Positions 14,332-16,936 of a stretch of 64,000 nt of DNA are shown piece after piece. The notes below the pieces were generated by a model. The model saw only the letters and a list, made by a program, of their open reading frames with translations. It did not search any database and was not told the origin of the DNA. How positions within the stretch are numbered: the first letter of the stretch is position 1; each line of letters opens with the position of its first letter. A program made the position numbers and the translations under genes. Source of the stretch: Chamaelirium japonicum (taxonomy: Eukaryota; Streptophyta; Magnoliopsida; Liliales; Melanthiaceae). The stretch is taken from positions 19,573,532 to 19,637,531 of the forward strand of contig OX393549.1 of assembly GCA_947650365.1 (NCBI GenBank), read 5' to 3'.

Positions 14332-14459
14332 ATATATATATATATATATATATATATATATATATATATATATATATATATATATATATATATATATATA
14401 TATATATATATATATATATATATATATATATATATATATATATATATATATATATATAT
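14332..14459. repeat. (TA)n microsatellite
   Basis: About 128 bp of near-perfect TA dinucleotides, the left border of the first foldback cluster. Confidence 0.95.
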
Positions 14460-14805
14460 GGGAAAGGGTAGCCTACTCCATGGAGTAGGAAACTTACATA
14501 CTCCATAGGTTAAATGGATGCCGTGTTGCACTTTTTGATGGAAGTTAAGACTTGGTCAAGTTAGGTTCACCCCTTCCAACAATTATCAAGAAATTTTTTT
14601 TGAGAAAAACATATACCAAGTGGCATTTTTAGCATCCACAAAAAATATGTTTTTACGATACACAGTTTACCGTTAAATTTGTTTCAACTTGATCGAGTTG
14701 GTTTAAGTTTTTTTCTTCGGATTTTTTTTCATAATCCTAATATATCCATATTAGATTGATCATAGATGAATAAAAAATTTGATTAAAAAGTGTCATGTGG
14801 CGTCT
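14460..14805. mobile_element. Element G: unclassified insert between TA/CA tracts
   Basis: A non-coding AT-rich segment bounded by (TA)n on the left and TATA(CA)n on the right. It opens with a small palindrome around CTACTCCATGGAGTAG. It shows no long inverted repeat, so it is only provisionally grouped with the foldback elements by its position. Confidence 0.35.
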
Positions 14806-14842
14806 ATATACACACACACACACACACACACACACACACACA

Positions 14843-15199
14843 GAGTAGTGATACATTGCGGCCTTAACGTGCGGCACCCCCTTTCGGGGTATTTTCGTAT
14901 TTTTTTTTTTTGGGATTGATCACCCACCCTTGGATAGCACACACAAAAAATTTCAGCTCGATCCAAGACCTGTAGGCCGTCCAAATGTGTTGATCAAAAT
15001 GACGACAAAAATGAACGATCGATAAAAGTCGATCATATTTGGACGGCCTACAGATCTTGGATCGAGCTGAAATTTTTTGTGTGTGCTATCCAAGGGTGGG
15101 TGATCAATCCCCAAAAAAAAATAAAATTATGAAAATACCCTAGAAGGGGGTGGCCGTACGTTGAGCCACACGTTACCTGGCCGCAATGTATCACTACTC
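14843..15199. mobile_element. Foldback element A, copy 1
   Basis: About 357 bp of almost complete inverted repeat. Its ends are GAGTAGTGATACATTGCGGCC and the reverse complement GGCCGCAATGTATCACTACTC. The arms continue through TTGATCACCCACCCTTGGAT and AAAAAATTTCAGCTCGATCC to a short centre near 15010-15030. The left flank is (CA)n, the right flank (CT)n then (TA)n. No coding capacity is seen. Copies 2 and 3 are at 16381-16727 and 35606-35938. Confidence 0.85.
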
Positions 15200-15227
15200 T
15201 CTCTCTCTCTCTCTCTCTCTCTCTCTC

Positions 15228-15380
15228 TATATATATATATATATATATATATATATATATATATATATATATATATATATATATATATATATATATATAT
15301 ATATATATATATATATATATATATATATATATATATATATATATATATATATATATATATATATATATATATATATATAT
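15228..15380. repeat. (TA)n microsatellite, preceded by (CT)n
   Basis: (CT)n at about 15197-15228 runs directly into about 150 bp of (TA)n. It separates foldback elements A1 and B1. Confidence 0.95.
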
Positions 15381-16276
15381 GAGAATACGGGGTATGAGCT
15401 GACAGCCCATTTCTTCATTTGGGCTGTCAGCTAATAGCCCTCCGATTGCCATCATCAGCCATTCATTTAAAATAAAATAAAAAACACCCAACAAACAACT
15501 CTCTCTCTCTCTCTCTCTCTCTCTCTCTCTCTCTCTCCCTCTCTCTCGAGCGATCGGCAGCCCATCCGACGCGAGCAGCCCCTCCTACCACCTTCCACTC
15601 CTTGCCGATCGTGAGCACCCCCCTCCGGCACCGGCTCCCTGCTGATCGCCAGCACCCCCCTCCGGCACCGATCTCCGGTAGCACCCTGGATCTGGGATCT
15701 GGTGCTGAACCCCCTCCGACGCGAGCATCCCCTCCGACCACCTTCCACTCCTCTGCACCGGCGCCCTCCCCTCTACCTCCGGCACGGAGCCGATCGCCCT
15801 CCCCCTCCTCCGGTGCGGAGCCGATCGCAGCCTCGCGATCTGCGCGGATCTGGTGCTCAACCCCCTCCTCTGGCGCGGATCTGGTGCTCAACCCCCTCCT
15901 CCGGCGCGGATCTGGTGCTCAACCCCCTCCGCCGGAGCGCAATCGCAGCCACCCCCTCTGCTCCGACGCCCTCCCCCCCTCCTCCGGCGCGGAGCCGATC
16001 GCAGCCACCCCCTCTGCCGCCGGGGTTCGCAGTCGCCGGAGTTCTCTGTGCCCGCCGCCGGAGTTCGCGGTGCCGGTGCCGGAGGGGGGAGCTGAAGGTG
16101 GAGGTGGTCGTCGTCAGGGAGGGGGCTGCCGATCGCTCGAGAGAGAGGGAGAGAGAGAGAATTGTTTATTGGGTGTTTTTTTTTTATTTTAAATGAATGG
16201 CTGATGATGGCAATCAGAGGGCTATTAGCTGACAGCCCAAATGAAGAAATGGGCTGTCAGCTCATACCCCGTATTC
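15381..16276. mobile_element. Foldback element B, copy 1, with GC-rich interior
   Basis: About 0.9 kb. The ends GAATACGGGGTATGAGCTGA and TCAGCTCATACCCCGTATTC lead inverted arms of about 125 bp (to AACACCCAACAAACAA on the left), each holding its own small hairpin of GCTGACAGCCCA type. Inside lie (CT)n at 15501, a GC-rich interior of about 600 bp with CCTCCGGCGCGGATCTGGTG-type tandem units (15840-15930) and a closing (GA)n. The open frames in the interior are low-complexity Pro/Ser/Arg and differ between copies, so I do not call a gene. Copy 2 is at 37635-38566. Confidence 0.82.
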
Positions 16277-16308
16277 TCTCTCTCTCTCTCTCTCTCTCTC
16301 TCTCTCTC

Positions 16309-16381
16309 TATATATATATATATATATATATATATATATATATATATATATATATATATATATATATATATATATATATAT
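16309..16381. repeat. (CT)n-(TA)n microsatellite
   Basis: (CT)n from about 16274 passes into (TA)n; it separates elements B1 and A2. Confidence 0.95.
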
Positions 16382-16727
16382 AACATGCGGGCTTAACGTG
16401 CGGCACCCCCTTCGGGGTATTTTCGGAATTTTTTTTTTTTTGGGGATTGATCACCCACCCTTGGATTGGACACACAAAAAATTTCAGCCCGATCCAAGAC
16501 CTATAGGCCATCCAAATGTGTTGATCAAAATGGCGAAAAAATTGAACGACCGATAAAAGATCAACACATTTGGACGGCCTACAAGTCTTGGATCGGGCTG
16601 AAATTTTTTGTGTGTCCAATCCAAGGGTGGGTGATCAATCCCAAAAAAAAAATCCCAAAAATACCCCCGAAGAGGGTCGCCGCACATTAAGCCCGCATGT
16701 TACCCGCCACAATGTATCACTACTCTC
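16381..16727. mobile_element. Foldback element A, copy 2
   Basis: Inverted arms run from ACATGCGGGCTTAACGTGCGG on the left to the matching CCGCACATTAAGCCCGCATGT near 16680-16701; the right side keeps the family's outer CAATGTATCACTACTC end. The left end lacks that outer 20-bp segment, so this copy is slightly end-deleted. The centre is at about 16540. It is flanked by (TA)n on both sides, with (CT)n at the right junction, as in copy 1. Confidence 0.85.
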
Positions 16728-16742
16728 TCTCTCTCTCTCTGT

Positions 16743-16936
16743 ATATATATATATATATATATATATATATATATATATATATATATATATATATATATAT
16801 ATATATATATATATATATATATATATATATATATATATATATATATATATATATATATATATATATATATATATATATATATATATATATATATATATAT
16901 ATATATATATATATATATATATATATATATATATAT
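16743..16936. repeat. (TA)n microsatellite
   Basis: About 190 bp of (TA)n after a short (CT)n, the right border of the first foldback cluster. Confidence 0.95.

What the first reader, a model, noticed from the sequence alone, without database searches (positions are those of the whole stretch)
14332..16936. First cluster: foldback elements A1, B1 and A2 each embedded in (TA)n microsatellite
Seen directly: long (TA)n tracts alternate with near-perfect inverted-repeat elements, in the order (TA)n, G, (CA)n, A1, (CT)n(TA)n, B1, (CT)n(TA)n, A2, (CT)n(TA)n. Known: the rice Micron elements target (TA)n microsatellites. Inference: these are non-autonomous elements that insert only into TA repeats, each insertion splitting and perhaps extending the tract so that more elements can enter. 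No transposase is visible here.
Basis: partly seen in the sequence, partly recalled or inferred. Interest (0 to 1): 0.8.

Follow-up and report, generated by a model that had tools for sequence, protein, structure and literature searches.

The report
Jumping-DNA hairpins stacked in TA repeats
A stretch of plant-like DNA carries rows of small hairpin-shaped jumping-DNA pieces that sit in long TA repeats; this is a further example of an arrangement already described in rice, guayule, Medicago and pineapple.

Summary
Cluster 1 (14332-16936) holds three foldback elements (A1, B1, A2) joined by pure (TA)n tracts of 37-97 units; their inverted repeats score far above shuffles. Corrections: A1's left neighbour is (CA)16, A2 lacks the outer part of its left arm, and segment 'G' is not a foldback. 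A second cluster (35205-38754) holds six more foldbacks (H, A3, C, D, E, B2). The window has ten TA tracts of 39-195 bp and no other TA run above 8 bp; eight of the ten border one of the nine foldbacks.

Best reading: non-autonomous Mutator-like elements of the microsatellite-targeting kind already published as Micron/SaTar, MuTAnT and Ac-mMITE, stacked by adjacent, non-nested insertion. A broken FAR1+MULE transposase lies elsewhere in the window (41.5 and 61.4-63.6 kb, split by a Copia element). The tract-flush end R (38755), on its left, shares an exact 11-bp terminus with element D, so R is a candidate dead autonomous partner; its far end is outside the window.

The genome search did not complete (ten tries), so copy number, target-site duplications and empty sites are untested. 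New member of a known kind.

The parts
14332..14459 (.). pure TA tract, 128 bp, left border of cluster 1
14460..14809 (.). segment G1; starts GGGAAAGGG flush with the tract; no inverted repeat found; nature unknown
   Evidence: score 21, shuffle maximum 29
14811..14842 (.). (CA)16 between G1 and A1
14843..15196 (.). foldback element A1
   Evidence: 86.0% to A2 over 344 bp and 82.6% to A3 over 340 bp
15197..15380 (.). (CT)16 followed by a pure TA tract of 153 bp
15381..16274 (.). foldback element B1: arms of about 140 bp, 136/141 identical, around a GC-rich (0.72 over 15564-16122) interior; ends GAGAATACGGGG
16275..16382 (.). (TC)n followed by a pure TA tract of 74 bp
16383..16722 (.). foldback element A2; left arm shortened, joined to the TA tract at an internal TAAC
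16723..16936 (.). (CT)9, G, then a pure TA tract of 195 bp, right border of cluster 1
35205..35536 (.). foldback element H (arms 35205-35324 and 35364-35481) with right end GGGCAGGGATAC flush with the tract at 35537; left terminus not recognised
35605..35941 (.). foldback element A3, right outer arm lost and fused directly to C
35942..36333 (.). foldback element C
   Evidence: right end resembles the D and R terminus 9 of 11
36376..36729 (.). foldback element D; left end GGGTCGGGATC flush with the tract; right outer arm lost, joined to the tract at an internal TAAC
36812..37545 (.). foldback element E, arms 305/344 identical
37635..38566 (.). foldback element B2, ends GAATACGGGG, relative of B1 in the arms
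38567..38754 (.). pure TA tract of 188 bp between B2 and R
38755..41562 (.). R: left end GGGTCGGGATC identical to that of D; runs into the 3' end of the transposase gene at 41508-41562; proposed left part of a dead autonomous element
   Evidence: inference for the element as a whole
61396..63646 (-). broken transposase gene: FAR1 domain (63027-63440), MULE domain in two pieces (62716-63102 and 61369-62712), weak SWIM match; at least one stop codon and frame changes

Best explanation
The two clusters are stacks of non-autonomous Mutator-like elements (MULE-MITEs) whose transposase, supplied by another element, joins them to TA-repeat DNA. Each element keeps long inverted arms as the likely transposase recognition ends. 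Because every insertion leaves TA repeat on its borders and slippage lengthens that repeat, the next element lands beside the last and not inside it, giving a row of intact elements. SHOWN here: long inverted arms in nine elements, TA tracts at their borders, no foldback lying inside another, two end groups (GA-type and GGG-type), one MULE transposase remnant in the window, and an exact 11-bp terminus shared by element D and the tract-flush end R that leads towards that remnant. INFERRED: MULE membership, mobilisation in trans, targeting of TA repeats, lengthening of the tract by slippage, and R being one element with the transposase.
For: Nine of nine foldbacks tested have arms far above shuffles, scores 173-481 against maxima of 22-31, arm lengths about 118-441 nt. 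Ten TA tracts of 39-195 bp; eight border a foldback, one borders G1, one (19700) borders an uncertain end; the only other TA run of 8 bp or more is a single one of exactly 8 bp. The nine foldbacks lie end to end with none inside another. FAR1 E 8.7e-16 and MULE E 1e-16 and 6.8e-8 in the window. GGGTCGGGATC occurs twice in the window, each time flush with a TA tract; 0 of 100 shuffles had two matches; three more of 20 tract edges resemble it at 8-9 of 11, the other 15 at 4-6. Published systems match: 15 gSaTar families, non-nested in over 300 clusters, fused in places by deletion; MuTAnT, 9-nt duplications and a Jittery-like transposase; pineapple Ac-mMITEs with GA/TC ends and GA/TC tracts at those ends.
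Against: No 8-11 bp target-site duplication could be seen, as every border is repeat. No copy outside the window was searched: the genome search was unreachable in all ten tries. The right end of R is not in the window: R against the last 2.6 kb scored 23, like 20 shuffles at 21-28. The 11-bp match is short and D and R differ beyond it. G1 and R's first 500 bp show no internal inverted repeat. A1 has (CA)16 on its left. The GA-tract pattern (4 of 9 GA-type ends, 0 of 7 GGG-type ends, my own classification) is not significant (Fisher P 0.069).
Confidence: 0.8

Rival explanations
1. The elements come first and the TA tracts are made by them: insertion into a very short TA site, then expansion of TA (and of the element's own terminal GA/TC) during gap repair or later replication. 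The cluster then grows because each element manufactures its own landing pad.
For: TA runs in the window are either 39-195 bp or at most 8 bp, and no empty long tract was seen. (GA/CT)n tracts lie only at ends whose own terminus is GA/TC. The SaTar paper cites maize TAFT empty sites of 6-8 bp TA becoming up to (TA)50 on each side, and MuTAnT empty sites averaged nine TA repeats.
Against: One 64-kb window; the GA pattern is not significant. No empty site could be compared here. It overlaps with the best explanation and differs mainly in how long the target was.
Confidence: 0.35
2. Tc1/mariner (Stowaway-like) MITEs with the 2-bp TA duplication, which would also fit TA flanks.
For: TA on both sides of most elements.
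Against: By inspection none of the 20 tract edges reads like the Stowaway terminus that I recall (CTCCCTCC); arms are 118-441 nt, long for that group (recalled); a 2-bp TA target would not by itself explain tracts of 39-195 bp.
Confidence: 0.05
3. The row arose by tandem or segmental duplication of one unit, not by separate insertions.
For: A occurs three times and B twice.
Against: Neighbours belong to different families; A1, A2 and A3 are only 82.6-89.0% alike, and B1 and B2 match in the arms only.
Confidence: 0.04
4. The TA tracts, or the order of the elements, are an assembly artefact.
For: TA tracts are hard to assemble and all ten are uninterrupted; no reads were available to me.
Against: Each tract joins different, specific element ends, and truncated ends differ from element to element; the same architecture was confirmed by PCR in guayule (as stated in the SaTar paper). 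Tract lengths may still be wrong.
Confidence: 0.04

Closest known systems
SaTar elements (gSaTar of guayule, rSaTar of rice including Micron = rSaTar2), PMC5907723; Results and first part of Discussion read
   Same: Inverted-repeat elements of about 400-1700 bp bordered by microsatellites, often (TA)n, in rows of unrelated families with none interrupting another; fusions by loss of the linking tract, as at A3/C; autonomous MULEs found in such arrays.
   Different: Duplications of 10 bp in non-microsatellite copies are known there and untested here; no sequence comparison with any SaTar was possible.
MuTAnT of Medicago truncatula, PMC4486113; Introduction, Results and Discussion read
   Same: Foldback elements of 200-300 bp with long arms in (TA)n; 25% with lost arm portions; ends with GGGG/CCCC stretches; an autonomous copy with a Jittery-like transposase flanked by 59 and 27 TA repeats.
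   Different: One family there, several families side by side here; the transposase remnant here is broken and its link to the elements rests on 11 bp.
Ac-mMITEs of pineapple, PMC8449440; first part of Results, and Discussion read
   Same: (TA)n-associated MITEs, 46.1% of full-length copies in non-nested clusters; ends mostly GA and TC, with GA/TC tracts at those ends put down to slippage.
   Different: Two families of 510-570 and 210-270 bp; the elements here measure about 277-932 bp and are more varied.
TAFT elements of maize (Wang and Dooner 2006), seen only as cited in the papers above
   Same: MULE-type elements flanked by TA repeats, reported to expand a short TA site.
   Different: Not compared in sequence.

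Membership tests
Mutator-like elements (MULEs) | long terminal inverted repeats | tested here: met
   Nine of nine foldbacks, arms about 118-441 nt; G1 and R not met within the stretch tested.
Mutator-like elements (MULEs) | 8-11 bp target-site duplication | not testable with these tools
   Borders are TA, CT or CA repeat, or a fusion; no copy elsewhere could be fetched (genome search did not complete).
Mutator-like elements (MULEs) | ends shared with an element that encodes a MULE transposase | tested here: inconclusive
   D and R share 11 bp exactly; R leads to a MULE transposase remnant, but its other end is outside the window.
microsatellite-targeting MULE-MITEs (SaTar / MuTAnT / Ac-mMITE kind) | microsatellite borders on the elements | tested here: met
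   Eight of ten long TA tracts border a foldback. Exceptions: A1 has (CA)16 on its left, A3 and C are fused, H has no recognised left border.
microsatellite-targeting MULE-MITEs (SaTar / MuTAnT / Ac-mMITE kind) | non-nested rows of unrelated elements | tested here: met
   Nine foldbacks in two rows, none inside another.
microsatellite-targeting MULE-MITEs (SaTar / MuTAnT / Ac-mMITE kind) | most genomic copies in microsatellites; empty sites in relatives | not tested
   Own-genome search unreachable in ten tries; scans of viral and prokaryotic contigs gave 0 hits and are not informative for a plant element.
rice Micron | sequence likeness to Micron | not tested
   No Micron sequence was held or fetched.
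Tc1/mariner Stowaway MITEs | terminus CTCCCTCC (recalled) | tested here: not met
   By inspection of the 20 tract edges printed.

The most novel reading that the evidence does not exclude
The elements build their own landing pads: insertion into a few TA units is coupled to repeat synthesis, including GA/TC repeat copied from the element's own end, and unrelated families share one locus because they share a transposase through a common GGG-type or GA-type terminus while their bodies and outer ends are swapped (C, D and H share 70-80% of a core but differ in their outer ends). R would be the dead autonomous member at the edge of the array.
Probability: 0.15. Interest if true: 0.55.

Novelty: new member of a known kind. 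Interest (0 to 1): 0.28.

Why it matters
It adds another genome, of unnamed species, to the list in which MULE-MITEs stack in TA repeats, with nine foldbacks and a possible transposase partner within 50 kb. If the link of R to D held, it would offer a concrete element pair for testing how TA repeats are chosen and lengthened, a point that the published papers leave open (circular intermediate and recombination, or a TA-specific transposase and polymerase stuttering).

Tried and rejected
G1 as a foldback: rejected. R's right end inside the window: not found. MULE domain inside the GC-rich B and E elements: none in the ORFs scanned (one sub-threshold match to DUF3915, E 0.0029, dismissed as low complexity). 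A second copy of the transposase in the window: tblastn with its pieces gave no other match better than E 2.0. Only 39 of the 106 ORFs of 120 aa or more were scanned against Pfam, so other transposase remnants may exist. R as a carrier of a captured MYB gene: a 28-residue piece matches Myb_DNA-binding at E 2e-4, below the family's cut-off (21.8 against 24.4 bits); the 130-residue remainder matched nothing in Pfam, NCBIfam or the PDB; the name SHAQKYF/DIVARICATA-type is recalled. Rfam and tRNA searches of the window found nothing. Scans of public contigs with short patterns from A, B and the C/D/H core found nothing. Tandem duplication and Stowaway were considered and set aside (see rivals). 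The GA-tract test dropped five ends: A2 left and D right (truncated), the A3/C fusion counted as one, G1 right and H left (unclear).

Full report
1. Observation. Arms of A1, B1 and A2 align at scores 197, 255 and 224; the largest of 100 dinucleotide shuffles each was 22, 30 and 23. A1 folds as single-stranded DNA at -154.3 kcal/mol against a shuffle mean of -39.4, sd 4. Three details need mending: A1 has (CA)16 on its left, A2's left arm is short by 24 nt, and G1 is not an inverted repeat.

2. A second cluster. Between 35205 and 38754 lie H, A3, C, D, E and B2, all foldbacks (scores 214, 173, 310, 250, 481, 436; shuffle maxima 24-31), followed by the tract-flush end R at 38755. A1, A2 and A3 are one family (82.6-89.0%), B1 and B2 another by their arms (70.7-77.5% over 102-198 bp), and C, D and H share a core at 70.7-79.6% with different outer ends. 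None of the nine foldbacks lies inside another.

3. TA tracts. A search for TA or AT runs of four units or more found 11: ten of 39-195 bp, all uninterrupted, and one of 8 bp. Eight of the ten border a foldback, directly or through a CT/TC tract; the tract at 14332 borders G1; the tract at 19700 is followed by (GA)18 and a sequence I could not place. The longest TA run in 30 dinucleotide shuffles of the window was 8 bp. The gap between 8 and 39 bp suits tract lengthening tied to the elements, though one window is a small sample.

4. Ends. Read inwards from the tract, ends are of two sorts: GA-type (A and B families) and GGG-type (H, C, D, E, R, G1). GGGTCGGGATC occurs twice in the window, at 36376 (D) and 38755 (R), both flush with a TA tract; shuffles gave a mean of 0.05 and 0 of 100 had two. 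Of 20 tract edges, the C, E and H ends match it at 9, 8 and 8 of 11, the remaining 15 at 4-6 (best of five offsets each). (GA/CT)n tracts stand at 4 of 9 GA-type ends and 0 of 7 GGG-type ends by my own classification; Fisher P 0.069, so suggestive only. Two shortened arms, A2 left and D right, both join the tract at an internal TAAC, which suits deletion between the tract and an inner TA; A3 and C are fused without a tract.

5. Transposase. On the minus strand, 63027-63440 matches FAR1 (PF03101, E 8.7e-16), and 62716-63102 and 61369-62712 match the two parts of the MULE domain (PF10551, E 6.8e-8 and 1e-16); a SWIM match (E 0.0074) is below its cut-off. The gene is broken: one in-frame stop between the two MULE parts and changes of frame. 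A Copia element with 94.2% alike long terminal repeats (41563-43529 and 59436-61388) and the 5-bp duplication CTTTG sits in its 3' part; the sequence on either side of it reads into a zinc-knuckle-like motif (CKVHGHDKRNC; the motif's name is recalled). From R at 38755 to the gene's end at 41508 no TA tract intervenes. That makes R plus the gene a plausible dead autonomous element, but its right end would lie past 64000: R against the last 2.6 kb scored 23, as did shuffles (21-28).

6. Comparison with the literature. Four searches returned listings. In three papers that I read in part, the same arrangement is described: SaTar in guayule and rice, MuTAnT in Medicago and Ac-mMITEs in pineapple. 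They include non-nested rows, fused elements, shortened arms, GA/TC tracts at GA/TC ends and Jittery-like or other MULE partners. I found nothing here that these papers do not already cover in kind.

7. What is not shown. No copy outside the window was seen. All ten requests to search the source genome were unanswered, and the scans of viral and prokaryotic contigs (0 hits each) do not bear on a plant element. The species is unknown; 'plant' rests on the gene content (FAR1, plant mobile domain, Copia and other retrotransposon genes). Target-site duplications cannot be read in TA repeat. MULE membership is therefore inference from the arms, the ends and the published relatives.

8. Verdict. Real, well above chance, and a new member of a known kind. 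Modest interest: the most useful part is the possible D-R link.

Noticed in passing
window 19700-19900: A TA tract of 39 bp followed by (GA)18 and then ATGCTATAATGTGGCATGCGG; it looks like another GA-type element end, but no partner end was found.
   Followed up: partly
window 38755-40200: Downstream of R a piece resembles a MYB gene fragment with an in-frame stop (Myb_DNA-binding E 2e-4, below cut-off); possibly a captured gene fragment.
   Followed up: partly
window 41563-61388: A Copia-type element (LTRs 94.2% alike; TSD CTTTG) that contains a second one with LTR-like repeats at 45336-47455 and 53185-55305 (96.8%) and genes on the minus strand.
   Followed up: partly
window 2267-13572 and 21534-34753: Two related large retrotransposon-like units (85.5% over 7418 bp); each has an ORF on the minus strand with a plant mobile domain match (32904-34682 E 2.5e-10; 9454-10431 E 2.8e-4, below cut-off).
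   Followed up: no
window 19963-20880, minus strand: Thioredoxin-domain gene (PF00085 E 4e-21) about 3 kb from cluster 1.
   Followed up: no
window 35205-36729: H, C and D share a core at 70.7-79.6% but have different outer ends, as if bodies and termini were exchanged; A1 shares 45 bp of its centre with H at 80%.
   Followed up: partly
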